Below are positions 13,502-51,300 of a stretch of 63,250 nucleotides of DNA, piece by piece (the first letter of the stretch is position 1; each line of letters starts with the position of its first letter). The notes under the pieces are model-generated. The model saw only the letters and a list, made by a program, of their open reading frames with translations. It had not been told where the DNA came from and searched no databases. This DNA is from Lachnospiraceae bacterium (GTDB taxonomy: Bacteria > Bacillota > Clostridia > Lachnospirales > Lachnospiraceae): positions 1 to 63,250 of the forward strand of contig JAGAOO010000053.1 in NCBI GenBank assembly GCA_017623675.1. Reading direction: 5' to 3'. Made by a program: the position numbers and the translations under genes.

Positions 13502-13518
13502 TTGTATAGGGAAAAAAA

Positions 13519-13854: not shown

Positions 13855-13900
13855 TTTATATCTATAGCAAATAAAAATATTATTAAAGAAGATGATGATT

Positions 13901-14113
13901 ATGAAAAAGATATGTTTGAAGTTGATTCGTTTTTATCAGATTTTTTTGTCACCCTTAAAGGGTCATGGAACTTGTAAATTTTACCCGACGTGTTCCCAGT
14001 ATGCAATTGAAGCAATTCAAAAATATGGCGTATGGAAAGGCATCTTATTAGCAGGCTGGCGGATACTTCGATGCAACCCGTTCTCCAAGGGTGGATATGA
14101 TCCGGTTCCATAA
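13901..14113 (+). CDS. yidD: membrane protein insertion efficiency factor YidD
   Basis: About 70 residues with an amphipathic N-terminal helix ([14 protein letters not shown]) and the family motif [19 protein letters not shown]...[19 protein letters not shown] with three conserved cysteines. It assists YidC/Sec membrane insertion. Three ATGs lie close together; I place the start at 13901 because AAAGAAG then has a usable spacing, while at 13892 it would abut the start codon. Confidence 0.92.
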
Positions 14114-14125
14114 ATATGAAACACG

Positions 14126-14176
14126 ACTCTTAAATAAGAGTATCGTACAACGCGGGTTATGTGTTCGACACATAAC
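14126..14176 (+). other. two small hairpins in the yidC leader
   Basis: 14126-14141 (ACTCTTAAATAAGAGT) and 14156-14176 (GTTATGTG, TTCGA, CACATAAC) are inverted repeats between yidD and yidC. The second ends just before the yidC Shine-Dalgarno (AAGGAGG). Neither has a T-tract, so a role in translation or RNA stability is more likely than termination. Confidence 0.4.
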
Positions 14177-14190
14177 ATAAGGAGGTTAAT

Positions 14191-15468
14191 ATGGTTTTTT
14201 TAACTGCACAGGGAGGTTTTTTAGGCCCCTTTTGTTGGCTGTTAGGAAAGATTCTGAATTTAATATACGAAGGCTTTGCTTCTATTGGAATTGAGAACCT
14301 GGCACTTTGTATTATAGCGTTTACTGTTGTTGTAAAACTGATTTTACTTCCATTTACCTTAAGACAACAGAAGGGTACGAAAATTAATCAGTATATACAG
14401 CCGGAAATTCAGAAAATTCAAAAAAAGTATAAGAATAAAACAGATCAGGAATCCATGCTGAAGCAACAGCAGGAAACTCAGGAAGTGTATAGAAAATATG
14501 GAACCAGTATGACCAGTGGCTGTCTGCTTTCCTTTATTCAGCTTCCGATTATTTATGCATTATATCGAGTAATTTATAATATACCTGCATATGTACCGGC
14601 AATTAAGCAATTATATACTCCGATTGCAGAACAGATTTTGAAGGTAAATGATTATTCAACAATCCTTTCAACATTTGTTTCAGATAATAAGATTAATACA
14701 GCATCAAAAGCAATTAATACATTATCAAAACTAGATGCAGGTGCTGTAACGGATAATCATATCATTGATGTTATTTCTCAATTTAGTTTAAGCCAATGGG
14801 AATCCTTTGGAAACCTGGTTACAGAACATACGGGATTAATCGATGCAATTGCTACGAATGTTCCTCATATTAATAATCTGAACCAATTCATTCTGGGTAT
14901 TAATATATCGGAGGCACCAGGCTGGAAAATCAGTTGGGCATTATTGATTCCTATTTCAGCAGCATTGTTCCAGTTCTTGAGTACCAAGGTCATGCCAACA
15001 CCTCAGACTGACAACAGTGATCCTACAGCAGCACAAACGGCTGCTATGTCCAAGTCTATGTTATACACAATGCCAATTATGTCATTATTCTTCTGTATAA
15101 CATTACCGGCAGGTATTGGTATCTACTGGACCATGAGTGCATTAATCAGTTTATTGATTCAAGTAGGTATTAATATCTACTATGATAAGATTGCTGATAT
15201 GGATAAGATTCTGGAAAAGCAGATGGAAAAGGCAAAGAAGAAGAAAAAGAAAAATAAGAAATCATTTATGGAAAAAATGATGGAAGCTGCCGGAGCGGCA
15301 GAAAGCACAAGTAATTCTGCAAATAGCGTTGCAGGTACCAATTTGAAAAGTTATAATAATACATCTTCTGCAAATAGCGAAACTGTTACTTATCGAAAGG
15401 GAAGTATTGCTTCCAAGGCAAATATTATGCAACAGTATAATACCAATCAGAAGAATAAGGAGGAGTAG
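14191..15468 (+). CDS. yidC: membrane protein insertase YidC/Oxa1/SpoIIIJ
   Basis: 425 residues with the five-helix YidC core: hydrophobic segments at about residues 10-30, 40-60 (ENLALCIIAFTVVVKLILLPFTL), 110-130, 245-265 and 290-320. The cytoplasmic loop after helix 1 is charged and coiled (QPEIQKIQKKYKNK). The C-terminus is a lysine-rich and then Ser/Asn-rich tail of ~90 residues, expected to contact ribosomes. The extracellular loop between helices 2 and 3 is long. It inserts membrane proteins with or without SecYEG. It is followed by jag with a 2-nt gap. Confidence 0.95.
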   Translation: MVFLTAQGGFLGPFCWLLGKILNLIYEGFASIGIENLALCIIAFTVVVKLILLPFTLRQQKGTKINQYIQPEIQKIQKKYKNKTDQESMLKQQQETQEVYRKYGTSMTSGCLLSFIQLPIIYALYRVIYNIPAYVPAIKQLYTPIAEQILKVNDYSTILSTFVSDNKINTASKAINTLSKLDAGAVTDNHIIDVISQFSLSQWESFGNLVTEHTGLIDAIATNVPHINNLNQFILGINISEAPGWKISWALLIPISAALFQFLSTKVMPTPQTDNSDPTAAQTAAMSKSMLYTMPIMSLFFCITLPAGIGIYWTMSALISLLIQVGINIYYDKIADMDKILEKQMEKAKKKKKKNKKSFMEKMMEAAGAAESTSNSANSVAGTNLKSYNNTSSANSETVTYRKGSIASKANIMQQYNTNQKNKEE

Positions 15469-15470
15469 AG

Positions 15471-16103
15471 ATGGAATTTATCGAGTTTAAAGGAAAAAAC
15501 GTTGATGATGCGATTACAGAAGCTTCTATTCATTTCGGTATTGCCAGTGATGAATTAATATATGAAGTTATTGATAAGGGAAGCACCGGTATCTTAGGTT
15601 TTATTAATACCAAGCCTGCTATTATTCGTGCTAAAAAGAAGGACTCCTTTGAAGATATTATATTAGAATTCTTAGAAAATCTGTTTAAGGTTATGGGTGT
15701 TGAAACCGTTGTAGATATTAACTACAATGAGGAAGAAAAGACGATGGATATCAACCTGACCGGTCCGGAAATGGGTGTATTAATCGGTAAGAGAGGACAG
15801 ACCCTGGATGCGTTACAAAAGATTGTACAGTCAGTTGTAAACAAGCATAGTGAAGAGTTTATCCGGGTAAAATTAGATACAGAAAATTACCGTGCAAGAA
15901 GAAGAGATACCTTAGAGAATCTCGCAAAGAATATTGCATATAAGGTAAAGCGTACCAAGAAGTCTGTAGTATTAGAACCAATGAATCCATATGAAAGACG
16001 GATTATTCACTCCGCACTTCAGAATGATAAGTATGTAAGTACCAGAAGTGAAGGTGAGGAGCCATTCAGAAGAGTTGTTATTTACTATAATCGTGCAAAA
16101 TAA
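15471..16103 (+). CDS. jag: RNA-binding protein Jag/KhpB (SpoIIIJ-associated)
   Basis: 210 residues: Jag N-terminal domain (1-55, FKGKNVDDAITEA...GSTGILGF), KH domain with GxxG loop (MGVLIGKRGQTLDAL, about 100-115) and R3H domain (LEPMNPYERRIIHSALQ, about 165-195). It is an RNA-binding partner of KhpA that affects cell division and wall synthesis in other Firmicutes. A strong SD (AAGGAGG) overlaps the end of yidC. Confidence 0.95.
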   Translation: MEFIEFKGKNVDDAITEASIHFGIASDELIYEVIDKGSTGILGFINTKPAIIRAKKKDSFEDIILEFLENLFKVMGVETVVDINYNEEEKTMDINLTGPEMGVLIGKRGQTLDALQKIVQSVVNKHSEEFIRVKLDTENYRARRRDTLENLAKNIAYKVKRTKKSVVLEPMNPYERRIIHSALQNDKYVSTRSEGEEPFRRVVIYYNRAK

Positions 16104-37410: not shown

Positions 37411-38067
37411 ATGAATATGCGTTTAAGAAATGTAAGAGGCTCGCGGGAAACGATTGCAGCTAACGAGTATGTGATTAAAAATGAAGCAGAGTATAAAGGA
37501 AAATGGAATCAGGTATTTGGCAATGAGAATCCCATTCATATTGAAATCGGAATGGGAAAGGGTCAGTTTATTACTACACTGGCACAGCAGAATCCGGATA
37601 TTAACTACGTTGGAATTGAAAAATACTCCAGTGTTCTGATTCGAGCCATAGAAAAGCAGGAGGAATTGCAACTGCCGAATCTGTTCTTTATTCGTATGGA
37701 AGCAGAATATATTGCAGATGTCTTTGCTAAAAACGAGGTGGCACGTATTTATCTCAATTTCTCAGACCCTTGGCCGAAAGATCGCCATGCAAAACGGCGT
37801 CTGACCTCAAAGGAATTTCTGACCCGCTATAATCAGATATTGGTGCCGGAAGGTGTGGTAATATTCAAGACAGACAATCGGGAGCTATTTGATTTTTCTG
37901 TTGAGCAGGTGCCGGAGGCAGGATGGAATCTTGTGAACTGTACCTATGATTTGCATAACAGTGAATTCGTAGAGGGGAACATTATGACGGAATATGAAAC
38001 CAAGTTTGCGGCAGAAGGAAAACCGATTCACCGGCTGGTGGCAAACAGGGCTGTGGATGAGGTTTGA
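37411..38067 (+). CDS. trmB: tRNA (guanine-N7-)-methyltransferase
   Basis: 218 residues. SAM-binding IHIEIGMGKGQFI (about 45-57), YVGIEKYSSVLIRAIEK, and the family signature LNFSDPWPKDRHAKRRL (about 113-130). It methylates G46 in the tRNA variable loop. 8 nt after the S41 peptidase gene and 32 nt before the hydrolase. Confidence 0.96.
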   Translation: MNMRLRNVRGSRETIAANEYVIKNEAEYKGKWNQVFGNENPIHIEIGMGKGQFITTLAQQNPDINYVGIEKYSSVLIRAIEKQEELQLPNLFFIRMEAEYIADVFAKNEVARIYLNFSDPWPKDRHAKRRLTSKEFLTRYNQILVPEGVVIFKTDNRELFDFSVEQVPEAGWNLVNCTYDLHNSEFVEGNIMTEYETKFAAEGKPIHRLVANRAVDEV

Positions 38068-39065: not shown

Positions 39066-39138
39066 GCGCTTCTAGCTCATTTGGTAGAGCACCTGACTCT
39101 TAATCAGGGTGTGCGGGGTTCGAGCCCCCGGAGGCGCA
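39066..39138 (+). tRNA. tRNA-Lys(CUU)
   Basis: 73-nt cloverleaf: acceptor GCGCTTC/GAGGCGC, D arm GCTCATTTGGTAGAGC, anticodon stem CCTGA/TCAGG with loop CTCTTAA (anticodon CTT), T arm CGGGG TTCGAGC CCCCG, discriminator A. CCA is not encoded. It reads AAG. Confidence 0.96.
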
Positions 39139-39440: not shown

Positions 39441-39725
39441 ATGAAAAATAATGAATATATAAAAAAAATGGTATTAGAGATTGTAAACGATTATCCAATT
39501 ACAAAAGTAAGCTTATTTGGTTCTAGAGCACAAGGTACAAATCGGGAAGATAGTGATGTTGATTTACTTATGGAATTTTCAAAACCGGTATCCTTAATTA
39601 TGATTTGTACAATTAAGGATGTTCTTGAAGAGAAATTAGGATTGAATGTGGATTTAGTACATGGTCCACTAGGGCAAGATGCTATGATTGAGATAAATGA
39701 GGTGATTGAACTATATGCAGCATGA
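39441..39725 (+). CDS. MNT-domain nucleotidyltransferase, MntA-type antitoxin
   Basis: 94 residues, minimal nucleotidyltransferase fold: SLFGSRAQGTNREDSDVDLLMEF has the GSR and DxD catalytic residues. MntA-like antitoxins of HEPN/MNT (type VII) systems adenylylate a partner HEPN RNase toxin. Such genes normally overlap or adjoin a ~110-150-residue HEPN gene. Here only a 28-codon open frame follows, so this looks like an orphan antitoxin. Confidence 0.85.
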   Translation: MKNNEYIKKMVLEIVNDYPITKVSLFGSRAQGTNREDSDVDLLMEFSKPVSLIMICTIKDVLEEKLGLNVDLVHGPLGQDAMIEINEVIELYAA

Positions 39726-39801
39726 TGTATATATTACGGTAACAGAGGAATTTCCAAAGATTCTGTCCAGTATGTTAGCGATAGATTTGAAAGAAGATTA
39801 G
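39715..39801 (+). pseudogene. 28-codon remnant, possibly C-terminal end of a HEPN toxin
   Basis: An open frame of 28 codons overlaps the end of the MNT gene by 11 nt, the arrangement in which HEPN partners usually start. The peptide (HDVYITVTEEFPKILSSML...) resembles the C-terminal helix of HEPN partners, of the form W-x-T-x(3)-D-x-P. The catalytic R-x4-6-H core is missing. I read it as a deletion product, with modest confidence; it could also be chance. Confidence 0.35.
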
Positions 39802-39816
39802 TTACTATGCTACAAT
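39787..39816 (+). promoter_or_regulatory. promoter of the radical SAM/GH3 operon
   Basis: -35 TTGAAA (39787-39792), 18-nt spacer, -10 TACAAT (39811-39816) with TGC upstream (extended -10). Start near 39823, 42 nt before the first gene. No other promoter is obvious up to 49820. Confidence 0.55.
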
Positions 39817-39864: not shown

Positions 39865-41166
39865 ATGAAGCTGCTAATGATACATGCATGGAACGAAAAA
39901 GAAGGTTCCTACAGGGGAAAATTTTCAAGTCTGCTTTCCTATCCGTCGCTGACTCTTGCTACGTTATATTCGCTGATTCCGGAAGGAATATTTGAACGAA
40001 TTGATATCATTGATGAAAATTCCCAAGTAGTAAAATATGATAAAGAAACCTATGACCTGGTAATGATTTCCTTTGAAACCTCCTCTAGTCTTACTGCATA
40101 CAAGCACTGTAAAGAGTTTAAGGAACGGGGTGTATATGTGGTGTGTGGGGGCTACCATGCCACTGCACTACCGGATGAGGTAGGGGAGCATTGCGATACG
40201 GTGATTATCGGTCCGGCGGAGATTTCCATTCCTCAGTTTATTGAGGACTTTGTACAGGGAAAACCGCAGAAGCAATATCGCAATTATGATGTATGTGTGG
40301 CAGAATTCCCGATTCCTGCAAGGGATAGAATTACGAAGCATAAGAAGTTGAAGATTCCTGCAATTGTGGCAGACCGGGGATGCGATAACTGTTGTAAATA
40401 CTGCTCCATGAGAACCATGTGGAAGAGCAATCCACGCCCGGTGGAGCAGGTGATTCGGGAATTAAAAGAATTGAAATCAAAGATGGTCATTTTCTATGAT
40501 CCGAATTTCTTTGCCAAACGGGAATATGCACTGGAACTCATGGAAGCCATGAAACCGTTGAAAATCTTGTGGGCATCCAATGCCACGGCAGATTTCGGAT
40601 ATGACCATGAATTAATGCAGGCGGCGTATGAAAGTGGATGCCGGGGAGTGTTGATTGGACTGGAATCGGTAAACACCCAATCCTTGACCAATGCAGCCAA
40701 GCGATTTCATGATGCAGATAAATATGTAGAAATCATTGAAAATATTCATCAGCACGGAATAGCAGTCAATGGCTGTTTTGTCTTGGGCTTTGACCAGGAT
40801 ACAGAAGAGGAGTTGTTATCCTTGCCGGACCGGGTGAATAAATTAGGCTTGGATTTGTGCCGGTTTGCAATTCTTACACCATATCCGGGAACCCGATTTT
40901 ATCAGGAATACGAGGCAGCAGGACGGATTATTACCCATGACTGGAGCCGATATAATCAGCATTATGCCGTATTTCAGCCGGTGAACATGTCGCCGGAACG
41001 ATTGAATGAAATCTATCGTCAGGTGTGGAAGGAAGCTTTTAGTTGGAAACGAATTCTGAAACGGACATTTTCTTCTCCATGGCGGAAGAATCTGTATGTG
41101 TTTATTTTGTTAGGAGCAAATATCGGATTCAAGTTCTTGGGAATTGATAAGGGGCATAAGCATTGA
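39865..41166 (+). CDS. B12-type radical SAM protein 1
   Basis: 433 residues. N-terminal Rossmann-like cobalamin-binding domain (about 1-135) with the GGYHAT motif (95-100); the classical DxHxxG is replaced by DENSQ. The radical SAM core has CxxxCxxC at Cys173, Cys177 and Cys180, then FYDPNFFA, GVLIGLES and TPYPGTRFY. A hydrophobic segment near the C-terminus (NLYVFILLGANIGFKFLG) could touch the membrane. Relatives include BchE-, HpnP- and HpnR-like enzymes that methylate or rearrange unactivated carbons; this substrate is unknown. First gene of an eight-gene operon; overlaps the next by 4 nt. Confidence 0.88.
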   Translation: MKLLMIHAWNEKEGSYRGKFSSLLSYPSLTLATLYSLIPEGIFERIDIIDENSQVVKYDKETYDLVMISFETSSSLTAYKHCKEFKERGVYVVCGGYHATALPDEVGEHCDTVIIGPAEISIPQFIEDFVQGKPQKQYRNYDVCVAEFPIPARDRITKHKKLKIPAIVADRGCDNCCKYCSMRTMWKSNPRPVEQVIRELKELKSKMVIFYDPNFFAKREYALELMEAMKPLKILWASNATADFGYDHELMQAAYESGCRGVLIGLESVNTQSLTNAAKRFHDADKYVEIIENIHQHGIAVNGCFVLGFDQDTEEELLSLPDRVNKLGLDLCRFAILTPYPGTRFYQEYEAAGRIITHDWSRYNQHYAVFQPVNMSPERLNEIYRQVWKEAFSWKRILKRTFSSPWRKNLYVFILLGANIGFKFLGIDKGHKH

Positions 41167-42482
41167 AAATTACATTTATTCGATTAAATATGTTTGAACA
41201 CATCAGCTCAGATGCCATGAAGCCATTGCTGTTCGGCATCATAAAGAGTCTGACACCAGAGGAATTTGATATCGATTTTATCGATGAGCGGGCAGAGAAG
41301 TTGCCGGAGCAGATTGATTCGGATATTATTGCTTTTTCCGTAGAAACCTATACGGCAAAACGGGCGTACATATTAGCAAAGAAATACAAGACAGACAAGA
41401 ATATTATCGTAATGGGTGGTTTTCATCCAACCGTTCTGCCGGAGGAAGTATTGCAGTATGCGGATACGGTAATAGTGGGAGATGCAGAGGATACCTGGGA
41501 ACCATTTTTAAGAGATTGTCAAAAGGGAAGACCCAAGGCACGATATGTGTCCGGAGAAACCTGTAAGCTGACTGCTTTAATAGAGGACAAGAGTATATAT
41601 AAGCATAAATACTATGGAATCGGTGTGTATCAGATATCAAGAGGCTGCAAATTCAACTGCGATTTCTGCTCCATTAAAACCATGTACAAGCAGGTTCGTA
41701 GAAAAACCACAGAGGATGTGGTAAAGGAATTGACTCAGGCGAAGGAAAAAATCATTTTCTTTGTAGATGACAATCTGTTCTATGACCGGCAGTCTGCAAT
41801 GGAATTGTTCCGTGCTATGGCGCCGTTGAAGAAGAAATGGGCATGCCAGATTAGTATGGATGTGGCACAGGATGATGAGTTGCTGGCAGAAATGAAGAAG
41901 GCAGGTTGTTTTTTAGTTTTGCTGGGTTTCGAAAGTCTGAATCCTCAAAGCCTGACGACCATGAAGAAATCTGCCAATAAGGCGGCAGGAGATTATGATG
42001 AGGTTATTCAGAGGATTTATCGTCATAAGATGTTGATTTATGGAACCTTTGTATTCGGTTATGATAATGATGATAAAGGGGTATTTGATGAAACCTTTGC
42101 ATTTGCAGTACGGAATCATCTGGCAGTTACGAACTTCAATCCCCTTATACCCATGCCGGGAACACCGGTATATGACCGTATGGAGCAGGAGGGTCGGTTG
42201 TTGTATAAGAAATGGTGGCTTTCTGACCAATATCGGTATGGAGAAACGGCTTACCGTCCAAAACATATGACACCGGAAGAGTTGCGTGACGGCTGTTTGC
42301 GTATTCGTACCCGATTCTATTCGCCCGGATGTATTTTGAAACGGTTCTTTGCTAACCCGATTCATTTGCTGCCATGGAACTTTGTAGTGTTTCTGTTGGT
42401 CAATGTGATTTCCGCAAAGGAAATTCATGCAAAGCAGGGACAGATGCTTGGAGGAATTTTGAATGAAACTGACGTTGATTAA
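41163..42482 (+). CDS. B12-type radical SAM protein 2
   Basis: 439 residues, TTG start overlapping the previous stop by 4 nt. Cobalamin domain with GGFHPT and DERAE in place of DxHxxG. Iron-sulfur cysteines Cys162, Cys166, Cys169 (SRGCKFNCDFCS). FVDDNLFY, VLLGFESLNPQS, IPMPGTPVYDRMEQEGRLLYKKWW follow. Its pattern VETYTAKRAY and the KWW...Y.YGE segment group it with copies 3 and 5 rather than 1 and 4. Hydrophobic C-terminal stretch LPWNFVVFLLVNVI. Overlaps the next gene by 20 nt. Confidence 0.88.
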   Translation: MKITFIRLNMFEHISSDAMKPLLFGIIKSLTPEEFDIDFIDERAEKLPEQIDSDIIAFSVETYTAKRAYILAKKYKTDKNIIVMGGFHPTVLPEEVLQYADTVIVGDAEDTWEPFLRDCQKGRPKARYVSGETCKLTALIEDKSIYKHKYYGIGVYQISRGCKFNCDFCSIKTMYKQVRRKTTEDVVKELTQAKEKIIFFVDDNLFYDRQSAMELFRAMAPLKKKWACQISMDVAQDDELLAEMKKAGCFLVLLGFESLNPQSLTTMKKSANKAAGDYDEVIQRIYRHKMLIYGTFVFGYDNDDKGVFDETFAFAVRNHLAVTNFNPLIPMPGTPVYDRMEQEGRLLYKKWWLSDQYRYGETAYRPKHMTPEELRDGCLRIRTRFYSPGCILKRFFANPIHLLPWNFVVFLLVNVISAKEIHAKQGQMLGGILNETDVD

Positions 42483-43797
42483 ACCGAATATCGGCAGACG
42501 GGAGCATAGCCTGTATGTGGATGAGGCGAGAATGGAACCCTTGCAGCTTGGAATATTGGCAGCACTGACCCCGGAGGATGTAGAAGTGGTAATGTATGAT
42601 GACCGTATGGAGGAAATACCTTACGATGAGCCGACGGATTTGGTGGCAATTACCGTAGAGACCTTTACTGCCAGACGGGCATATGAGATTAGTGAAGAGT
42701 TTCGTAAACGAGGGGTGAAAACGGTAATGGGCGGTATGCATGCCATGTTGATATCGGAAGAAGTGGCTGAGCATTGCGACTGTGTCATGGTGGGTGATGC
42801 GGAGCCGGTTTGGAAGGAAATGATTGAAGACTGCAGAGCCGGAAGATTAAAAAATCGCTATGATGCGGTTCAGCCGGAATGTCCTCAGATGAATGTGATT
42901 ACCCGCAGGGATATATTCGAAGGAAAGGGCTATCTTCCCATTACGTTATTACAGTTTTCCAGAGGGTGTAATCACAGCTGTAGCTTTTGTGCATCTTCCG
43001 TTTATTTTAAAGCCCGGCATTATTGCAGACCGGTGGAGGATGTGATTGCAGAAATCAAATCCCAGAAACGGAAGCTGTTATTCTTTGTTGATGATAATAT
43101 TGTATGTAACCGGGAAAAAGCAAAGGAATTATTTCGTGCCTTAATTCCCCTAAAGATTCATTGGGTCAGTCAGGGAAGTATGGATATGTTGCAGGATCCG
43201 GAACTAATGGAATTAATGGTGAAAAGTGGATGCTTGGGGCTGGTCATAGGCTTTGAGTCCATTTCTCCGGACTGTATTTCGGAAATGCATAAATATACGA
43301 ATAAAAAGGGCTCCGGTAACATGTATGAATCGGAGATTGAACAGTTAAGACAGTGGGGCTTGCAGACTTGGGCGGCCTTTACCGTAGGACATGATGGAGA
43401 TACGTTGGAATCCATTCGAGCAACCTGTGATTTTGCCATTCGGAATAAGTTCACTTTTGCAGCTTTTAATATTTTAATGCCATATCCCAATACTCCCCTT
43501 TACCGGAAAATGGAGCAGGAAGGGCGGTTGTTGTATGGCGGAAAATGGTGGTTACATGAGGACTATCGATTCAACTATTGCAGCATCGTGCCAAAGAACA
43601 TGACGCCGGATGAACTGACGGAGATTTCTTTTGATTGCAGGAGAAGATTTAACAGCCCTATGTCTATTGTGAAACGGGCATTGGAGCCTCGAACGAATCT
43701 ACGAACGCCATATCGGTTTGGTACGTATTTAATATATAATCCTTTATTCCGCAAAGAGGTGTTTAAAAAGCAGGGAATGAAATTCGGATTGAAATAG
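42463..43797 (+). CDS. B12-type radical SAM protein 3
   Basis: 444 residues. SD GGAGG lies inside the end of gene 2. Cobalamin domain with VETFTARRAYEI and GGMHAM; DDRME replaces DxHxxG. Cluster cysteines Cys169, Cys173, Cys176 (SRGCNHSCSFC). FVDDNIV, LVIGFESISPD, MPYPNTPLYRKMEQEGRLLYGGKWW. Closest in pattern to copies 2 and 5. Ends 42 nt before the first GNAT-like gene; a small CCCTG/CAGGG hairpin lies in that gap. Confidence 0.88.
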   Translation: MKLTLIKPNIGRREHSLYVDEARMEPLQLGILAALTPEDVEVVMYDDRMEEIPYDEPTDLVAITVETFTARRAYEISEEFRKRGVKTVMGGMHAMLISEEVAEHCDCVMVGDAEPVWKEMIEDCRAGRLKNRYDAVQPECPQMNVITRRDIFEGKGYLPITLLQFSRGCNHSCSFCASSVYFKARHYCRPVEDVIAEIKSQKRKLLFFVDDNIVCNREKAKELFRALIPLKIHWVSQGSMDMLQDPELMELMVKSGCLGLVIGFESISPDCISEMHKYTNKKGSGNMYESEIEQLRQWGLQTWAAFTVGHDGDTLESIRATCDFAIRNKFTFAAFNILMPYPNTPLYRKMEQEGRLLYGGKWWLHEDYRFNYCSIVPKNMTPDELTEISFDCRRRFNSPMSIVKRALEPRTNLRTPYRFGTYLIYNPLFRKEVFKKQGMKFGLK

Positions 43798-43839
43798 TGC
43801 AATTCCCCTGAAGACAGGGCAACGCTGGGAGGTGTCAGC

Positions 43840-44538
43840 ATGTTAAAAGGACAGATAAAACCAATTGGAGAATATACGGAAACAGAGATTTCAGAAATGT
43901 ATACGCTGATGAATACCTTTTATGACAATGTGGAGGAAGATGTATTCCGAAGGGATTTTTTTGACAAGGATTATTGTCTGGTGTTATATCATGAAACCGG
44001 TGGACTGGTTGGATTTACCACCCAGAAATTAGTGAATTTGAACGTGGATGGCAAGGTGGTACATGGAATGTTTTCCGGCGATACCATTATTCACAAGGAC
44101 TATTGGGGGGATATTGAACTGTTTAAAGTGTGGGCAAGATTCTGGTTCGAATATGCCGAACAGTATGAGGAGTTCTACTGGTTCTTAATCTGTAAGGGAT
44201 ATAAGACCTACCGGATTCTTCCGCTGTTCTGGACAGAATTCTACCCTAGCCGAAAGGCAGAAATTCCGGCATATGAACAGAGGATTATAGATGCGTATGC
44301 TTCCTTACTTTATCCTCAGGAATACAATCCATCAACAGGTGTGATAGAATACAAATCAGTGAAGGATAAATTAAAAGAGGGTGTAGCAGACATTGGAGAA
44401 CGGGAATTGAAAAATCCGGATGTTGCTTATTTTGTAAAACGGAACCCGGATTATAAGATGGGAAATGACTTGGCATGCTTGGCAAGAATTGACCGGTCCC
44501 TATTGAAAAAACCGGTATTGGGGATGTTATTTGAATGA
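43840..44538 (+). CDS. GNAT-like acyltransferase 1 of the radical SAM operon
   Basis: 232 residues with a GNAT-like core: YCLVLYHETGGLVGFTTQKLVNLNVDGKVVHGMFSGDTIIHKDYWG, in which the last strand and loop resemble GNAT motif A. The second half (YYPSRKAEIPAYEQRII...DPDYKMGNDLACLARID-like) is family-specific. No close family recognised. It could transfer an acyl group, or bind the product of the GH3-like enzyme whose gene it overlaps by 4 nt. SD GGAGGTG. Confidence 0.6.
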   Translation: MLKGQIKPIGEYTETEISEMYTLMNTFYDNVEEDVFRRDFFDKDYCLVLYHETGGLVGFTTQKLVNLNVDGKVVHGMFSGDTIIHKDYWGDIELFKVWARFWFEYAEQYEEFYWFLICKGYKTYRILPLFWTEFYPSRKAEIPAYEQRIIDAYASLLYPQEYNPSTGVIEYKSVKDKLKEGVADIGERELKNPDVAYFVKRNPDYKMGNDLACLARIDRSLLKKPVLGMLFE

Positions 44539-46130
44539 GTATAGGAAGTGAAATCTGTAATCGGATTTGTAAAGCCTTATATCAAAATGAATATCGCAGA
44601 TTTGTGACACCCTGTGAATTGGAAAGGGTGCAGACGGATTATTTACTGGAACTGCTTCATAAAAATGCGGATACGGTGTATGGGGAGAAATATGGTTTTG
44701 CAGACATAAAAAGCTATAAGGAATTTGCTGAAACAGTACCCTTAACTACGTATGAGGATTATGAAGCTTATATTGAGGAGATTGGCAAGGGAAAGAAAGG
44801 GGTTCTCACCAAAGAACCGGTATTACTGCTGGAATTAACCAGTGGTTCCTCCGGTGGCAAGAAGTTCATCCCTTATACCAAGTCCTTAAAGCAGGAATTC
44901 CAAAAGGGAATTAAGCCCTGGCTTTATAATATTTATGATCAGGTGGAAGGTGTGTGTCAGGGAAGAAGCTATTGGTCTATTACTCCGGTGACGGCAAAAA
45001 AGAGTTATACGGAAGCCGGAATTCCCATTGGGTTTGAGGAGGATGCAGAATATTTTGGAGGAATCGAACAGGGGATTATGAAGCAGTTATTTGCAGTCAG
45101 TTCCAAGGTGAAATTCTCATCAGATATGGAAGCATTTTATATGCAGACCTCCGTAGAACTTCTGCAGTGTAAGGAACTGACCCTGATTTCCGTTTGGAAT
45201 CCTACCTTTTTAACGATTCTTTGTGATTTTATGAGAGAGCATGTGGAGGAGATTTTGCTACAGGTGCCGGAGCGTGAGAGCAGGAAGACTTCTCATCATG
45301 GCAAGGAGTCAGAAGCAGTCCAAGTGGCGGAGGCAATTCGTACCAATCAATGGGAGCAGGTATTTCCAAAGTTGAAAATCATTAGCTGTTGGGCAGATGG
45401 AAGTGCTGCTGATTCGGTGAAACGGGTGCGGGAATATTTTCCCAATACTTACATTCAGCCAAAGGGCTTGCTGGCAACGGAATGTTTTGTATCCTTTCCG
45501 ATGGTTGGTGAAGAAGGCAGTAGATTAAGTCTGTACTCTCATTTCTTTGAGTTTCGAAGTGTAGAGAATGACCGCATTTATATGGTGCATCAGTTGAAAA
45601 AGGGAATGTATGAAGTGATTGTTACAACCGGTGGTGGTCTTTACCGATATTGCATCGGTGACATGATAGAGGTATTAGAGACATACGAAGCGGCACCGCC
45701 AAGAGTTCGCTTCCTGAGACGGAAGGGTATCACCTGTGACTTGTATGGAGAAAAGCTGACAGAGGAATTCGTAAGAAAAGTGTGCATGAAGCTTGGCTTG
45801 CAGGAGGGGTTCTGTCTGCTGGCACCGGAAGGGAATCGGTATTGTCTGTATACGCAGGAGGTTTGTATTTCGGAACAGGCATTGGATGAGGCGTTGTGTG
45901 AAAATTATCATTATGATTATTGCAGGAGGCTGGGACAGCTACAACCGGTAATAATACAGTTGGTGACCGGCAATCCGGGACAGGATTATTTGAAGCGACT
46001 GACCACAGAGGGAATGCGGTTGGGTGATATTAAACCGGCATATTTAAGTGGGAAAAGCGGATGGAATGAATGGTTTCATCTTGCAGAAATGAAAGAGATT
46101 AATAGGGAAAGGACAGATACAGATGATTAA
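44535..46130 (+). CDS. GH3-family acyl-adenylating enzyme (amidosynthetase-like)
   Basis: 531 residues, clear member of the GH3 family named for plant auxin/jasmonate amidosynthetases. ATP motif ELTSGSSGGKKFIPYTK (about 96-113), SYWSITPV, LLATECFVSFPM, and the acid motif GGGLYRYCIGDMIEV, then RFLRRKGI...GEKLTEEFV. GH3 enzymes adenylate a carboxylic acid and join it to an amine, usually an amino acid, without a carrier protein. In this operon it would activate an acyl acid for amide formation. Translationally coupled on both sides (4 and 8-nt overlaps). Confidence 0.88.
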   Translation: MSIGSEICNRICKALYQNEYRRFVTPCELERVQTDYLLELLHKNADTVYGEKYGFADIKSYKEFAETVPLTTYEDYEAYIEEIGKGKKGVLTKEPVLLLELTSGSSGGKKFIPYTKSLKQEFQKGIKPWLYNIYDQVEGVCQGRSYWSITPVTAKKSYTEAGIPIGFEEDAEYFGGIEQGIMKQLFAVSSKVKFSSDMEAFYMQTSVELLQCKELTLISVWNPTFLTILCDFMREHVEEILLQVPERESRKTSHHGKESEAVQVAEAIRTNQWEQVFPKLKIISCWADGSAADSVKRVREYFPNTYIQPKGLLATECFVSFPMVGEEGSRLSLYSHFFEFRSVENDRIYMVHQLKKGMYEVIVTTGGGLYRYCIGDMIEVLETYEAAPPRVRFLRRKGITCDLYGEKLTEEFVRKVCMKLGLQEGFCLLAPEGNRYCLYTQEVCISEQALDEALCENYHYDYCRRLGQLQPVIIQLVTGNPGQDYLKRLTTEGMRLGDIKPAYLSGKSGWNEWFHLAEMKEINRERTDTDD

Positions 46131-47457
46131 GATTGCATTACTGGCACCGGCAGGAGCCATGCACCGGTATTCGGGAAGTTTTGGAAAATCCTTACATTAT
46201 GCACCACTCACATTGACGACTCTAGCGGCATTGGTGCCGGAAGACGTAGAAGCAGATGTGGTGATTTATGATGAAACAGCAGGGAAGATTCCCTTAGATA
46301 TAGATGCAGAGTTAATCGGCATCACCTGTATAACCGGAACGGCACCCCGGTGCTATGCTTACGCAGATTATTTCCGCAAAAAGGGAAAAACGGTTTTTAT
46401 GGGTGGCGTTCATCCAAGCTTTATGCCGGAAGAGGCGGGACAGCATGCAGATGTTGTCTTTACCGGATTTTCTGAACAGACCTTCCCACAGTTTATTCAT
46501 GATTATGTGAATGGTAATTATCAGAAGCTTTATCGCCAGAATTGTGATTTTACCATTGAGGGAAAACCAATACCAAGACGAGAGCTTTTGAATAAAAAAC
46601 GGTACATTACCACAAAGACAGTAGAAGCGATTCGGGGTTGTTCTCTGCCATGTAGTTTTTGTGCTTATCCGGCAGCTTTCGGACGAACCGTATATAAGCG
46701 TCCGGTAAAAGAGGTTGTGGCAGAAATTGAGGCCTTGCATACCAAGCATGTGCTGTTTCCGGATGTGAATCTGATTACAGACCGGAAGTATGCCATTGAA
46801 TTATTTACTGCATTAATTCCACTGAACATTATCTGGCTGGGGTTGGCAACCTCCTCCGTTGGGATTGATGATGAGCTGATGACCGTATTTCGAAAAAGTG
46901 GCTGTAAGGGCTTGCTGATTGGATTTGAGTCCATTACCCAGGAGTCTCAAAAGTATATTAATAAAGGCGTGAACCGGGTGGACGGTTACATAGAATTAAT
47001 GAAGAAGCTTCATGACAATGGAATATTAGTACAAGGCTGTTTTGCATTTGGCGGTGATGAAGAGGATGAAAGCGTATTTGACCGTACCGTGGAAACGGTA
47101 ATCAAGGCAAAAATCGACTTGCCTCGATATTCCATCCTGACTCCGTTTCCTAAGACACAGTATTACAATCAATTGGAACAGGAAGGCAGAATTATAGAGC
47201 GGAATTGGGCCATGTATGACGTAGAGCATTGTGTGTTCCTACCTAAGAAAATGACTAAGGAACAGCTGGAGGCAGGAACGGAACGGGCATGGCGGGATAC
47301 CTATTCTACATCATCAATTCTAAAACGGTTGGCTCCATTTAATCACAGTCCATGGCTGGCTTTTCCGGTGAACATGGGATATAAGGGATATGCAGACAAG
47401 TGGCATAAATTTACCAGAGAGGTTATGTGTGATAACTCGGATATACCGGTACTTTAA
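46123..47457 (+). CDS. B12-type radical SAM protein 4
   Basis: 444 residues. Cobalamin domain with GGVHPS and DETAG in place of DxHxxG. Cluster cysteines Cys173, Cys177, Cys180 (IRGCSLPCSFC). FPDVNLITDRKYA, LLIGFESITQES, TPFPKTQYYNQLEQEGR. The IPRRELLNKKRY linker before the cluster resembles the PARDRITKHKKL linker of copy 1, so copies 1 and 4 form one subgroup. Starts within the last codons of the GH3-like gene. Confidence 0.88.
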   Translation: MIKIALLAPAGAMHRYSGSFGKSLHYAPLTLTTLAALVPEDVEADVVIYDETAGKIPLDIDAELIGITCITGTAPRCYAYADYFRKKGKTVFMGGVHPSFMPEEAGQHADVVFTGFSEQTFPQFIHDYVNGNYQKLYRQNCDFTIEGKPIPRRELLNKKRYITTKTVEAIRGCSLPCSFCAYPAAFGRTVYKRPVKEVVAEIEALHTKHVLFPDVNLITDRKYAIELFTALIPLNIIWLGLATSSVGIDDELMTVFRKSGCKGLLIGFESITQESQKYINKGVNRVDGYIELMKKLHDNGILVQGCFAFGGDEEDESVFDRTVETVIKAKIDLPRYSILTPFPKTQYYNQLEQEGRIIERNWAMYDVEHCVFLPKKMTKEQLEAGTERAWRDTYSTSSILKRLAPFNHSPWLAFPVNMGYKGYADKWHKFTREVMCDNSDIPVL

Positions 47458-47476
47458 GGAAGGGATGGAAACAAAG

Positions 47477-48808
47477 ATGAAGATAACTTATATACTTCCT
47501 GCCATTGGGAAGAAACCGGGAAAAAAGTATATTGGGACATGGAAAATGGAGCCCCTAACCATGGCGGTATTAAAGGCCTTGACACCGAGAGAAATCGAAA
47601 CGGAATTCTTTGATGACCGGATTGAGTTAATTAATTATGAGACACAGACGGATTTGGTGTGCATTACAGTGGAAACTTATACGGCAAAACGAAGCTACGG
47701 AATTGCAAAACGGTTTCGGGAGCGTGGAATACCTGTGGTTCTGGGAGGCTATCACGTTACCCTTTGTCCGGAAGAAGCACAGGAATATTGTGACAGCGTG
47801 ATTGTGGGAAACGGGGAAACGGTCTGGAAAGAAATGCTGGATGATGCACAGCAGGGAAGACTGAAGCCTGTGTATCAGGGTGGTATAGGAGAGTATGATG
47901 TGACACCGGATAAGAGTATTTTTGAGGGTAAGAAATACCTGCCTGTATCTTTGGTGGAAACCGGACGGGGCTGTTGTCATTCCTGTGAGTTTTGTTCCAT
48001 TTCGAAGTTCTATTGCAGCCGGTATTATTGTCGAGACCATAAGCTGATAGCAGAGGACATTCGGCGTTCGGAGCATAAGTATACGTTCCTGGTAGATGAT
48101 AATTTGGTTGCCAATCGGGAAAATGCCATGGGTATTTTTCGGGAGATTGAACCCTTCAAGATTAAATGGGCAGGGCAGGGAACCTTATCTATGGCAAGAG
48201 ATGAGGAATTGTTAAAAGCCATGAAGAAAAGTGGCTGTGAAATTATTTTAATTGGGTTTGAGAGCTTGAACAAAGAGAACCTAAAGCAGATGAACAAATC
48301 CTTTAACTATGCATTGGGAGAACGGGATGAACTGGTGAAGCGGATTCATGATGCAGGAATCGGAATCTATGCCACCTTTGTATTTGGATATGATAATGAT
48401 GATGAACGGACAGTGGAGGAGGCAGTAGCTTTTGCGAAAAAGCATAACTTTTATACGGCAGCATTTAATCATTTGCTTCCGTTTCCAAACACGCCTCTGT
48501 ATCATCGCCTAAAGCAGGATGACCGGCTGCTTTATGACAAATGGTGGTTGCAGGAGGACTATAACTATGGAGAACTCGCATTTCGCCCAAAGCAATTGTC
48601 ACCGGAGAAATTAAGCCAGCTTTGTCATGATGCCAGAAAGGAATTCGCATCACCAAAGACTGTGTTAAGCAGAGGATTTGCATCGCTTGGAAGAACCAGT
48701 CCGTTACTTTGGGGATTGTTCTGGGGTATGAATCTGCGGTTAGGAGAAGAAGTAGATCAGAAGATGAATGTACCGATAGGAGAGAATCTGGATGAACTTC
48801 CAAAATAA
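47477..48808 (+). CDS. B12-type radical SAM protein 5
   Basis: About 443 residues. The frame is open from 47390, but the N-terminus MKITYILPAIG aligns with the starts of the four paralogues, so I start at 47477, 12 nt after GGAAGGG. Cobalamin domain with VETYTAKRSYGI and GGYHVT; DDRIE replaces DxHxxG. Cluster cysteines Cys166, Cys170, Cys173 (GRGCCHSCEFC). FLVDDNLVA, ILIGFESLN, LPFPNTPLYHRL, DKWWLQEDYNYGE. Subgroup with copies 2 and 3. Overlaps the last operon gene by 17 nt. Confidence 0.88.
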   Translation: MKITYILPAIGKKPGKKYIGTWKMEPLTMAVLKALTPREIETEFFDDRIELINYETQTDLVCITVETYTAKRSYGIAKRFRERGIPVVLGGYHVTLCPEEAQEYCDSVIVGNGETVWKEMLDDAQQGRLKPVYQGGIGEYDVTPDKSIFEGKKYLPVSLVETGRGCCHSCEFCSISKFYCSRYYCRDHKLIAEDIRRSEHKYTFLVDDNLVANRENAMGIFREIEPFKIKWAGQGTLSMARDEELLKAMKKSGCEIILIGFESLNKENLKQMNKSFNYALGERDELVKRIHDAGIGIYATFVFGYDNDDERTVEEAVAFAKKHNFYTAAFNHLLPFPNTPLYHRLKQDDRLLYDKWWLQEDYNYGELAFRPKQLSPEKLSQLCHDARKEFASPKTVLSRGFASLGRTSPLLWGLFWGMNLRLGEEVDQKMNVPIGENLDELPK

Positions 48809-49820
48809 TAAATACACGCTGGAATTTGCAACAAGTGAAGATAACGCCGGAATTCGAGAAATATTTGAAGCCGGTGAATTTCGTGGCGGAATCAGTGTCA
48901 GATATCTTCGTAATCCACTGCCACTTGCTTCCTTTGAGGCAGATGGAGATGCCAGAATAATGGTGATTCGGGATAACGAATGTCAGAGAATTATTGCAGT
49001 TGGCGGGGCGGTACTCCGCAGGGAATATGTGAATGGAAAAGAAGAAACCTGTGGTTATCTTACCGGGCTAAAGATTCACCCGGATTATCAGAAGAAGACC
49101 ACATTTATTGCCAAATCCTATCAGTTTTTATATGAACATATTCAGGGTTGTTACTGTTATTATACAACCATTCTGGATGAAAATGAGACGGCAATCCGGC
49201 TTCTGGAAAAGAAGCATAAGAATATGCCTGTCTATCACTATCTGGGGCATTATACCACTTATTGTTTTCATAATGGAAAGCATATACTGGATCTGGAACA
49301 GGATTGCATGGAAGGATTTGAGGAGCTGATGAAAACATATTTTTCTAACCACAGTCTGACACCGGTGGATTATCAGTGTGCCGGATTTGGAGATACTCAT
49401 TTTTACTGTGTCCGGGAAAAGGGAGAAATCATTGCCTGCTGTTTTGTAGGAAATCAGCAGGCACATAAGCAGTATCACATGTGTTCCTATAGCGGAATTT
49501 ATAAGATACTATCTTGTCTGCCGACAAAGTGGTTTGGTTATCCGGCATTTCCAAAGCCGGACAGCGATGTGAATTTCGGGGTTGTTTCGTATCTGTATGT
49601 AAAGGATGACCAAAAAAAGCTGTGCTCAGATTTCTTGCGTTCAGTGGCAGCAGAAGCAGGATTTGATTTGCTGCTTTGGGGCGGTTTTGAGAATCATCCC
49701 TTGTGTAAAGCAATGAATTCTATGAAAGCCATTCATTATGGCAGTCGACTGTATTCCGTTGCGTGGGAGCAGGAGGCACCCATAGATGGAATCATTGGAA
49801 TGGAAGCTGCGCTGCTATAA
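48792..49820 (+). CDS. GNAT-like acyltransferase 2 of the radical SAM operon
   Basis: 342 residues. GNAT motif A-like segment GYLTGLKIHPDYQKKTTFIAKSYQFLYEH (about 96-125) and YYTTILDENETAIRLLEKK. The length suggests two tandem GNAT-like folds, the second around VVSYLYVKDDQKKLCSDFLRSVAAEAGFDLLLWGGF. Cysteine-rich for its kind. Probably uses an acyl-CoA, but the substrate is unknown. AGGAG ribosome site within the end of copy 5; last gene of the operon. Confidence 0.7.
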   Translation: MNFQNNKYTLEFATSEDNAGIREIFEAGEFRGGISVRYLRNPLPLASFEADGDARIMVIRDNECQRIIAVGGAVLRREYVNGKEETCGYLTGLKIHPDYQKKTTFIAKSYQFLYEHIQGCYCYYTTILDENETAIRLLEKKHKNMPVYHYLGHYTTYCFHNGKHILDLEQDCMEGFEELMKTYFSNHSLTPVDYQCAGFGDTHFYCVREKGEIIACCFVGNQQAHKQYHMCSYSGIYKILSCLPTKWFGYPAFPKPDSDVNFGVVSYLYVKDDQKKLCSDFLRSVAAEAGFDLLLWGGFENHPLCKAMNSMKAIHYGSRLYSVAWEQEAPIDGIIGMEAALL

Positions 49821-49953: not shown

Positions 49954-51300
49954 ATGGGATTTAGTAAGGATTTTATGTGGGGTGCTGCTTCTGCTGCCTA
50001 TCAGGTTGAGGGAGCATGGAATGAAGATGGAAAAGGTCCAAGCATCTGGGATGTTTGTGGCAGAGACAGAAATGTAATTCAATATAATGAAACCGGTGAT
50101 GTGGCTTGTGACCATTATCATAGATATAAAGAAGATGTTGCAATCATGAAGGAAATGGGACTGAAATGCTATCGGTTTTCCATTAGCTGGTCAAGAGTAA
50201 TTCCGAATGGGGTTGGAGCCGTCAATGAAAAGGGGTTGCAGTTTTATTCGGATTTAGTAGATGAATTAAAGGCAAATGGAATTGAACCATTGGTTTCCCT
50301 GTTTCATTGGGACTATCCGTATGCTTTGTACCAGAAGGGTGGCTGGATGAATCCGGAGTCTTCAGACTGGTTTTTAGAATATACAAAGGTGGTTGTGGAT
50401 GCGTTATCTGACCGGGTATCTTATTGGATTACTATGAATGAGCCACAGTGTTTTATTGGCTGTGGATATGAGTTCGGTTCCCATGCACCATTCCTTCAAA
50501 CAAATCGAAAAGACTTAATTACCATGACACATAATGTATTGCTGGCACACGGAAAAGCGGTCAAATATATTCGGGAGCATGCGAAAACGAAAGCAGAGAT
50601 TTCCTTTGCACCAATTGCACCGGCATATATTCCGACAAATGATTCAAAGGAAGCCATAGAAGTGGCCAGAAAGAAGACCTTTGGAATGCGGGAAAAGGGC
50701 TTTACCTTTGGATTGACCTGGTGGAGCGATCCGGTTATCTTTGGTAAGTACCCGGAAGAGGCATATGAGTTGTTTGGAGATGATATGCCGGTATATAGTG
50801 AAGAAGATATGAAGCTGATTAGCCAGCCATTGGATTTCTATGGCATGAATGTATATTATTCGGCTTGTGATTATGTAGACAAAGGATATCCGGAAAATAT
50901 GTGGCAGGGACGAGGAATGACCGGCATGGGCTGGGTGGTTTCTCCGGAAGTTATGTACTGGTCATCGAAATTCATATATGAGCGTTATGGTCTGCCAATC
51001 ATGATTACAGAAAACGGTATGGCAGGTATGGATTGGATTCATATGGATGGCAAGGTGCATGACACCTATCGAATTGATTTCCTGCATCGCTATCTGTTGG
51101 AATATCGTCGGGCAGCAGAGGAAGGAATTCCTTTGAAGGGCTATATGCATTGGTCAACCATGGATAACTTTGAGTGGGCATTGGGCTATAATAAGCGATT
51201 TGGTCTGGTGTATGTGGATTATGCGACGCAGGAGAGAACCATTAAGGATTCCGGTTACTGGTATAAAGAAGTGATTGAGACAAATGGAAAAAATCTATAG
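49954..51300 (+). CDS. bglA: GH1 family beta-glucosidase
   Basis: 448 residues. N-terminal signature FMWGAASAAYQVEGAWNEDGKG. Acid/base glutamate in TMNEPQ and nucleophile glutamate in ITENGMAG. The segment NFEWALGYNKRFGL carries the Glu-Trp pair that binds an unphosphorylated glucose; 6-phospho-glycosidases have a Ser/Lys/Tyr set here. So I infer hydrolysis of free cellobiose-like or aryl beta-glucosides in the cytoplasm. SD AAAGGAG. No sugar transporter is adjacent. Confidence 0.95.
   Translation: MGFSKDFMWGAASAAYQVEGAWNEDGKGPSIWDVCGRDRNVIQYNETGDVACDHYHRYKEDVAIMKEMGLKCYRFSISWSRVIPNGVGAVNEKGLQFYSDLVDELKANGIEPLVSLFHWDYPYALYQKGGWMNPESSDWFLEYTKVVVDALSDRVSYWITMNEPQCFIGCGYEFGSHAPFLQTNRKDLITMTHNVLLAHGKAVKYIREHAKTKAEISFAPIAPAYIPTNDSKEAIEVARKKTFGMREKGFTFGLTWWSDPVIFGKYPEEAYELFGDDMPVYSEEDMKLISQPLDFYGMNVYYSACDYVDKGYPENMWQGRGMTGMGWVVSPEVMYWSSKFIYERYGLPIMITENGMAGMDWIHMDGKVHDTYRIDFLHRYLLEYRRAAEEGIPLKGYMHWSTMDNFEWALGYNKRFGLVYVDYATQERTIKDSGYWYKEVIETNGKNL

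What the first reader, a model, noticed from the sequence alone, without database searches (positions are those of the whole stretch)
39865..49820. Eight-gene operon with five B12-type radical SAM paralogues, a GH3-family amidosynthetase-like enzyme and two GNAT-like acyltransferases
Seen: five paralogous ~440-residue proteins, each with a cobalamin-type N-domain and CxxxCxxC; a clear GH3 enzyme; two GNAT-like proteins; overlaps of 4, 20, 4, 8 and 17 nt; one promoter at 39787. Known: B12 radical SAM enzymes methylate, cyclise or couple unactivated carbons (HpnP, HpnR, BchE), and GH3 enzymes adenylate a carboxylic acid and form amides. Inference: a pathway making an acyl amide or lipid-like compound that is modified by several successive radical steps. 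No peptide-precursor gene, NRPS or PKS is visible, so it is neither a RiPP nor a standard assembly line. I know of no described product for this gene set. It is the strongest candidate for an undescribed system here.
Basis: partly seen in the sequence, partly recalled or inferred. Interest (0 to 1): 0.88.

Follow-up and report, generated by a model that had tools for sequence, protein, structure and literature searches.

The report
Modular anaerobic acyl-amide gene cassette
A gut bacterium carries a mobile block of eight genes, kept in the same order by other gut bacteria and, rearranged, on a plasmid of a distant relative, that looks like an undescribed way of building a fatty amide and then modifying it with several vitamin-B12 radical enzymes instead of oxygen.

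Summary
In detail: five B12-type radical SAM enzymes (rSAMs), one GH3 amide synthetase and two GNAT-fold acyltransferases lie in one tight operon at 39865-49820. It is not unique to this genome. Of 16 related loci from a named-genome scan, 13 show all eight genes in the same order; surrounding genes mostly differ, and three congeners lack the block at this site. A Citrobacter plasmid carries the same kinds of genes, five rSAMs included. Sparser relatives show a modular system: X4-GH3-B6-B7-N8 as core, with B1 and the pair B2+B3 added separately. Acinetobacter and Burkholderia records keep X4, GH3 and an N8-like gene with no rSAM near; Burkholderia has desaturases and a Rieske oxygenase there. 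N8 folds most like tandem GNATs, N-myristoyltransferases among them, and ends flush in E/D-x-x-x-hydrophobic in 21 of 22 copies, as expected if its C-terminal carboxylate is the catalytic base.

Most likely GH3 activates a carboxylic acid and makes an amide, N8 adds a long acyl chain, X4 a further acyl group, and the rSAMs tailor the scaffold without oxygen. Substrates, product and reactions are inferred, not shown. No described product turned up in the literature searched.

The parts
39865..41166 (+). B1: B12-type radical SAM, 433 aa, optional module
   Evidence: PF04055 64.1 bits, PF02310 28.2 bits (sub-cutoff); starred clade with a Citrobacter and a G557 member
41163..42482 (+). B2: B12-type radical SAM, 439 aa (TTG start), optional module, found only together with B3
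42463..43797 (+). B3: B12-type radical SAM, 444 aa, optional module with B2; the most alike to its Citrobacter counterpart (59%)
43840..44538 (+). X4: 232-aa single GNAT-fold protein, no Pfam family, core gene
   Evidence: AF2 pLDDT 92.4, Foldseek to GNATs, in one cluster with GH3 and B6 in 7 of 7 new genomes found by X4
44535..46130 (+). GH3 acyl-acid amido synthetase-like enzyme, 531 aa, core gene
   Evidence: PF03321 160.5 bits; three GH3 nucleotide motifs; plant GH3 structures by profile search
46123..47457 (+). B6: B12-type radical SAM, 444 aa, core gene
47477..48808 (+). B7: B12-type radical SAM, 443 aa, core gene
   Evidence: start from alignment with relatives
48792..49820 (+). N8: tandem GNAT, 342 aa, N-myristoyltransferase-like fold with flush C-terminal E/D-x-x-x-hydrophobic-COOH, core gene
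   Evidence: Pfam Acetyltransf_1; AF2 pLDDT 88.9; Foldseek 7q3a E 1.7e-11, then NMTs from E 1.1e-10; C-terminus
39787..39816 (+). possible sigma-70 promoter TTGAAA-18-TACAAT with extended -10
   Evidence: number of such sites in the region is at chance level
37411..38067 (+). left border gene of the island (putative methyltransferase PF02390, trmB-like)
   Evidence: PF02390 156.5 bits; in congeners G398, G106, G402 it lies 0.5, 1.0 and 1.6 kb from the right border gene, with no cassette GH3 in the genome
49954..51300 (+). right border gene of the island (glycosyl hydrolase family 1)
   Evidence: PF00232 489.4 bits

Best explanation
A horizontally moving, modular cassette for an acyl-amide (lipid-like) small molecule made without NRPS, PKS or a carrier protein of its own. 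Inferred scheme: GH3 adenylates a carboxylic acid with ATP and couples it to an amine. N8, an N-myristoyltransferase-like tandem GNAT, puts a long-chain acyl group from acyl-CoA or acyl-ACP on a second amine, using its free C-terminal carboxylate as base. X4, a single GNAT, transfers a further acyl or acetyl group. B6 and B7 carry out the obligatory oxygen-independent modifications of the scaffold (C-methylation, cyclisation or desaturation at unactivated carbons). B2+B3 and B1 are independent add-on tailoring modules. In Burkholderia, fatty acid desaturases, a Rieske oxygenase and a PF10118 protein (a di-iron type, as I recall) stand beside the same X4/GH3/N8-like set where anaerobes have B12-rSAMs. 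Shown: gene set, order, families, modular occurrence, phylogeny, empty sites, predicted folds, C-terminal conservation. Inferred: every substrate, every reaction, the product.
For: Conserved order: 13 of 16 related loci show all eight genes in order. Modular sets by whole-genome search of 9 genomes: B6+B7 in 4, B1+B6+B7 in 1, B2+B3+B6+B7 in 4 (the B7 of G557 and G1140 named by identity only). Five Citrobacter rSAMs: three fall inside starred B1, B2 and B3 clades; two are best BLAST matches of B6 and B7 but unresolved in the tree. X4 found by profile has GH3 and B6 in the same cluster in 7 of 7 further genomes. Acinetobacter and Burkholderia keep X4, GH3 and an N8-like gene without rSAM matches in the 25-kb stretches read. 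Lipid context: PAP2 and desaturase in Citrobacter; desaturase fused to a sub-cutoff PAP2 domain, further desaturases and Rieske in Burkholderia; PAP2 (72.5 bits) directly after N8 in L045. N8 fold and flush C-terminus in 21 of 22 examined; all 15 rows of A3 end in one column, GH3 and X4 tails are ragged. NMT mechanism: C-terminal carboxylate as base, called unique to NMT among GNATs (passages of PMC7048800 and PMC4964394). A bacterial GH3, OlsH, forms N-acyl ornithine from diverse fatty acids (abstract and sections 6, 8 of PMC12493201). The rSAMs are the most conserved parts (medians B3 87, B6 86, B7 81%), GH3 the least (60%). The genome has one cobalamin riboswitch.
Against: No substrate or product is known for any member. 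GH3 enzymes also use small acids, so 'fatty' is not forced. N8's best structural match is a non-NMT tandem GNAT (7q3a), TM-scores are moderate (about 0.56-0.63), and it hits no NMT Pfam family; the last two residues of the model have low confidence. PAP2 was seen beside only one Bacillota cassette, and no desaturase among the ten flank proteins scanned there. Burkholderia and Acinetobacter X4/GH3/N8-like proteins are only 21-32% identical to the window's where BLAST aligned them, and their N8-like genes have a sub-cutoff or no GNAT Pfam match, so equal function is a stretch. No transporter is conserved beside the Bacillota cassettes (L042 and L045 alone share an ABC-type pair).
Confidence: 0.55

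Rival explanations
1. A structural membrane lipid pathway: an amino-lipid of the ornithine-lipid type (GH3 makes the N-acyl amino acid, GNATs add the second chain, rSAMs modify the chains), kept in the membrane rather than exported.
For: OlsH precedent; weak OlsH equivalog hit of the window GH3 (45 bits); no exporter conserved in Bacillota; PAP2 and desaturase neighbours.
Against: Patchy occurrence within one genus (3 of 8) and insertion as an island suggest an accessory product; the Acinetobacter version lies among efflux-type genes (HlyD, MFS, OEP); the OlsH cut-off of 620 bits is far from met.
Confidence: 0.25
2. A polar, non-lipid natural product: GH3 activates a small or aromatic acid, the GNATs acetylate, the rSAMs C-methylate or rearrange, as B12-rSAMs do in antibiotic pathways.
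For: Plant GH3 enzymes in the profile search use small acids; N8's weak PDB sequence hits are acetyltransferases; AprD4-type rSAM models match (66 bits for B1).
Against: Desaturase and PAP2 context; NMT-like fold and C-terminus of N8; no precursor-supply gene conserved beside the block.
Confidence: 0.15
3. A protein- or peptide-modifying system (RiPP or protein lipidation) with N8 acylating a polypeptide.
For: NMT-like N8; rSAM enzymes are common RiPP tailoring enzymes (general knowledge).
Against: No conserved small ORF of 18 aa or more within 700 nt upstream (14 loci) or downstream (12 loci) except between two close pairs; gaps of at most 42 nt leave no room inside the window's operon.
Confidence: 0.05

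Closest known systems
OlsH/OlsI ornithine-lipid pathway of planctomycetes (PMC12493201; abstract, sections 6 and 8, found passages)
   Same: Bacterial GH3 enzyme in a short operon making an acyl amide, with the three GH3 nucleotide motifs
   Different: Curated OlsH model not met (45 of 620 bits); 'radical', 'GNAT' and 'acetyltransferase' do not occur in that paper's text; OlsI is an alpha/beta hydrolase, not a GNAT
Eukaryotic N-myristoyltransferase (PMC7048800, PMC4964394; passages read)
   Same: Tandem GNAT fold, flush C-terminus expected to supply the base
   Different: No NMT family hit by Pfam; top structural match is another tandem GNAT, 7q3a; substrate probably not a protein
HpnJ / BchE / PhpK class of B12-rSAMs
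   Same: Best NCBIfam matches of B1-B7
   Different: All far below curated cut-offs (at most 95 of 480-600 bits); no squalene-hopene cyclase found in the genome
AFC-BC11 of Burkholderia (PMC12186527; outline and parts 1-3 of 5 read)
   Same: N-acyl amide built without condensation domains, beside desaturases
   Different: Uses an A domain, carrier protein, FAAL and KASIII-like enzymes; no GH3 or GNAT described in the parts read
Ladderane gene clusters of anammox bacteria (PMC2649909, passages read)
   Same: B12-rSAM enzyme proposed to act on lipid chains without oxygen
   Different: Fatty acid synthesis genes; 'GH3' and 'acetyltransferase' have 0 occurrences

Membership tests
GH3 acyl-acid amido synthetase | PF03321 above Pfam cut-off | tested here: met
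   160.5 vs 23.6 bits
GH3 acyl-acid amido synthetase | three nucleotide-binding motifs | tested here: met
   TSGSSGGK, LLATE, LYRYCIGD in the window; strict motif I in 16 of 17 aligned, L052 variant
GH3 acyl-acid amido synthetase | ATP-dependent amide formation | not testable with these tools
   needs enzyme assay
OlsH (NF052613) | curated score 620 bits | tested here: not met
   45.4 bits
B12-type radical SAM enzymes | Radical_SAM domain and CxxxCxxC | tested here: met
   5 of 5 over cut-off; 84 of 84 rows with motif
B12-type radical SAM enzymes | B12-binding domain over cut-off | tested here: inconclusive
   3 of 5 over 32.1 bits, B1 28.2 and B3 27.9 below
HpnJ, BchE, PhpK, HpnR equivalogs | curated NCBIfam cut-off | tested here: not met
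   best 94.7 vs 577.6 bits for HpnJ, 94.3 vs 481 for BchE, 94.7 vs 600 for PhpK, 56 vs 650 for HpnR
Hopanoid pathway | squalene-hopene cyclase in genome | tested here: not met
   PF13243 0 of 1 (own genome, 94% complete; control rings in 2 of 14)
N-myristoyltransferase | NMT sequence family | tested here: not met
   only Acetyltransf_1 in Pfam
N-myristoyltransferase | tandem GNAT fold | tested here: met
   (predicted model)
N-myristoyltransferase | C-terminal carboxylate at active site | tested here: inconclusive
   flush conserved C-terminus in 21 of 22; position in model not measured
RiPP | precursor peptide gene | tested here: not met
   no conserved small ORF
NRPS/PKS or AFC-like thiotemplated assembly | adenylation, condensation, ketosynthase or carrier domain in the cluster | tested here: not met
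   Pfam of the eight proteins; no generally shared flanking gene

The most novel reading that the evidence does not exclude
A new class of biosynthetic system: an assembly core (GH3 + single GNAT + myristoyltransferase-like tandem GNAT, needing no carrier protein of its own) shared by anaerobes and aerobes, in which the oxidative tailoring is swapped wholesale: B12-radical-SAM modules in anaerobes, desaturase/Rieske/di-iron enzymes in aerobes. It would include a bacterial GNAT that uses its C-terminal carboxylate, a trait called unique to NMT.
Probability: 0.4. Interest if true: 0.87.

Novelty: new variant of a known kind. Interest (0 to 1): 0.72.

Why it matters
If right, gut Clostridia make an undescribed family of amide-linked acyl compounds whose carbon skeletons are edited by up to five dedicated radical enzymes, and the natural series of reduced cassettes (2, 3, 4 and 5 rSAMs) gives a ready-made set of intermediates with which to read each enzyme's reaction. 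It would also link anaerobic radical tailoring and aerobic oxygenase tailoring on one scaffold, and offer a bacterial counterpart of N-myristoyltransferase chemistry.

Tried and rejected
Cobalamin riboswitch or other Rfam element at the operon: only tRNAs reached the gathering score in the window and four loci; one cobalamin riboswitch lies elsewhere in the genome. Hopanoid reading: no SHC found. RiPP reading: no precursor. The distant GH3 genes of other Lachnospiraceae were followed: 15 of 15 fetched stretches, from 14 of the 22 other genomes with a match, had no rSAM, X4 or N8 match at E 1e-5; one 33-bit B7 match at E 1e-4 lies in an unrelated-looking gene of L079. Viral contigs: 9 pattern matches, none a relative. 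E. coli genomes: no match with 4 kb of the Citrobacter cluster. AFC-BC11: I suspected from memory that it was the Burkholderia cluster; the paper shows another enzyme set. Azospirillum X4-like loci: two of eight listed were read; no Azospirillum record matched the Citrobacter GH3. Literature: of ten searches, seven aimed at this gene set or GH3 in bacteria and gave no paper on it; the others were for AFC, NMT and ladderanes. Longer hit lists were seen only as their first 20 (8), and only open-licence full texts are held, so absence in print is not proven.

Results against the reading, told above: weak B12-domain scores for B1 and B3; N8's top structural hit is not an NMT; lipid genes are not generally conserved beside the Bacillota cassettes; L063 N8 and L040 B7 have broken frames. 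In the tree several deep joins involve long branches (Citrobacter, L066, L002, L092 rows), flagged by the program; the Citrobacter and L066 rows of B6 and B7 type are unresolved. Dropped before the tree as too short: L065 B7 and the two pieces of L040 B7; L039, L041, L042 and L044 were not given to it. The B7 genes of G557 and G1140 found lie on other contigs and are not in the tree. N8 ends of L043 and L044 are cut by contig ends and were not counted.
Full report
OBSERVATION. The window holds eight + strand genes at 39865-49820, here called B1, B2, B3, X4, GH3, B6, B7, N8. Junctions overlap by 4, 20, 4, 8 and 17 nt, with gaps of 42 (B3-X4) and 19 nt (B6-B7). Pfam: Radical_SAM in B1, B2, B3, B6, B7; B12-binding above cut-off in B2, B6, B7 and below it in B1 and B3; GH3 in the fifth gene; Acetyltransf_1 in N8; nothing in X4. 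NCBIfam places the rSAMs nearest to HpnJ, BchE and PhpK but far under every curated cut-off, and the GH3 nearest to OlsH at 45 of 620 bits. The GH3 nucleotide motifs are intact. The proposed promoter is at chance level as a pattern.

CONSERVATION. A scan of one genome per species (84,980) with the GH3 protein, which finds close relatives only, gave 17 loci; one, archaeal, is a remote GH3. Of the other 16, 13 show all eight genes in the same order (L040-L048, L050, L051, L053, L054; L041, L043 and L044 cut at a contig end; L053 with one 812-aa peptidase-GGDEF-EAL frame between GH3 and B6; L040 with B7 in two frames). L039 begins inside GH3 and continues B6-B7-N8; L049 lacks B1; L052 (Limnochordia) has X4-GH3-B6-B7-N8 only. 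In the clustering no flanking gene family is shared by more than three of 15 loci; L042 and L045 share an ABC-type transporter pair upstream, and L045 has a PAP2 gene directly after N8. Ten flank proteins of seven loci were Pfam-scanned, not all.

ISLAND. In the window's genus 3 of 8 genomes have the GH3. Three of the five without it, G398, G106 and G402, have the left border gene (37411-38067, PF02390) and right border gene (49954-51300, glycosyl hydrolase family 1) 0.5, 1.0 and 1.6 kb apart, against 11.9 kb in the window: an empty site. In the other two, G399 and G401, the right border gene was not found at the limit used. Operon GC is 43.3% against 39.7 and 37.8% in the 10-kb flanks. In a family sample 23 of 397 genomes have some GH3; apart from the window's own, matches are mostly 24-31% identical over longer stretches, up to 45% over short ones, and 15 of 15 fetched stretches (14 of the 22 other genomes) lack rSAM, X4 and N8 matches.

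MODULARITY. A profile of X4 found it in 5 of 398 phylum-sample and 4 of 391 class-sample genomes, the window's own counted in each. In all 7 others GH3 and B6 lie in the same cluster. A whole-genome search of nine genomes with B3 (E 1e-20) counted this rSAM group per genome: two in G513, G635, G916 and G1166 (L052); three in G557; four in G711, G941, G1140 and G1165 (L049). With the tree and, for B7 of G557 and G1140, identity alone, these are B6+B7; B1+B6+B7; and B2+B3+B6+B7. B2 and B3 thus come and go together, B1 independently. N8 is visible on the stretch in four of the seven (L063 with a broken frame, L066, L090, L091); L064 and L065 end before it and in L092 it is not seen.

ACROSS PHYLA. 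tblastn of GH3 against plasmid records gave five records. On a Citrobacter portucalensis plasmid the order is X4-GH3-B6-B7-N8-B2-B3-PAP2-hypothetical, then a B1-clade rSAM and a fatty acid desaturase on the other strand. In the 84-row tree the Citrobacter proteins join the B1, B2 and B3 clades with starred support; the other two, best BLAST matches of B6 (44%) and B7 (41%), branch openly. An Acinetobacter baumannii record has amidase, HlyD, MFS, X4, GH3, an outer membrane efflux protein and an N8-like gene. A Burkholderia arboris record has a desaturase fused to a sub-cutoff PAP2 domain, X4, an N8-like gene, a PF10118 protein, a desaturase, GH3, a Rieske oxygenase and a further desaturase frame. 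Neither 25-kb stretch gave an rSAM match.

ACYLTRANSFERASES. X4 is predicted with pLDDT 92.4 and matches GNATs such as 2hv2 and AAC(2')-Ia. N8 (pLDDT 88.9) matches the tandem GNAT 7q3a (E 1.7e-11) and then N-myristoyltransferases (from E 1.1e-10, TM about 0.58-0.63). N8 proteins end exactly at E/D-x-x-x-hydrophobic in 21 of 22 sequences examined, including those only 14-24% identical to the window's; the 22nd, L063, is broken and the frame behind the break ends in the same pattern. In the alignments GH3 and X4 have ragged tails while all 15 N8 rows end in the same column. In human NMT1 the C-terminal carboxylate is the catalytic base (passages of PMC7048800), and a review calls its involvement in catalysis unique to NMT among GNATs (passage of PMC4964394). 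That N8 works the same way is inference.

MECHANISM AND CHOICE. GH3 chemistry (acid + ATP to acyl-AMP, then amide) is established for plant enzymes (general knowledge), and OlsH forms N-acyl ornithine from diverse fatty acids (abstract and sections 6 and 8 of PMC12493201). With an NMT-like N8, PAP2 and desaturase neighbours in some relatives, and no NRPS, PKS, carrier or peptide gene, an acylated amide is the simplest product. The rSAMs are more conserved than the assembly enzymes (medians B3 87, B6 86, B7 81, B1 75, B2 74, X4 69, N8 65, GH3 60%; 11 loci), which fits fixed scaffold chemistry with varying acyl or amine partners, though it could also reflect stricter folding constraints of rSAMs. 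Which reaction each rSAM performs cannot be told from sequence.

KNOWN OR NEW. No paper on this gene set was found in seven aimed searches of an open-licence library (longer lists seen only in part). AFC-BC11 and ladderane clusters were compared and differ. I rate it a new variant of a known kind (GH3-dependent acyl amide synthesis with B12-rSAM tailoring); the bolder reading, a new class with exchangeable tailoring, is not excluded.

Noticed in passing
L088 (NZ_CP064203.1) 6255-16050: Acinetobacter baumannii record with amidase, HlyD, MFS, X4, GH3, outer membrane efflux protein and N8-like genes in a row: an rSAM-free relative of the core among efflux-type genes.
   Followed up: partly
L087 5728-7200, minus strand: Burkholderia arboris frame joining a PAP2 domain (sub-cutoff) and a fatty acid desaturase, divergent from X4 and the N8-like gene.
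   Followed up: partly
L053 11550-13985: An 812-aa frame with Peptidase_S51, GGDEF and EAL domains sits between GH3 and B6 of an otherwise intact cassette.
   Followed up: no
L045 11888-12814: A PAP2-family gene (72.5 bits) directly follows N8 on the same strand, as PAP2 genes stand beside the Citrobacter and Burkholderia versions.
   Followed up: partly
L068, L070, L074-L076, L081: Other Lachnospiraceae carry distant GH3 genes, several beside what look by eye like ABC exporters or MATE-type transporters; a second, unexplored GH3 subfamily.
   Followed up: partly
L052 6458-8803: A penicillin-amidase family gene stands upstream of the five-gene Limnochordia cassette on the opposite strand.
   Followed up: no
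L093 and L094 about 9962-10790: Azospirillum has a distant X4-like GNAT beside what looks by eye like a thioester-reductase-like SDR and ABC transporters.
   Followed up: no
window 39066-39138 and 39441-39725: A tRNA gene and a low-GC (31%) MNT-type nucleotidyltransferase gene stand just upstream of the operon at the island's left side.
   Followed up: no
window 4230-12860: A gyrA-gyrB-recF-dnaN-dnaA order (named by eye) suggests the replication origin lies about 27 kb from the operon.
   Followed up: no
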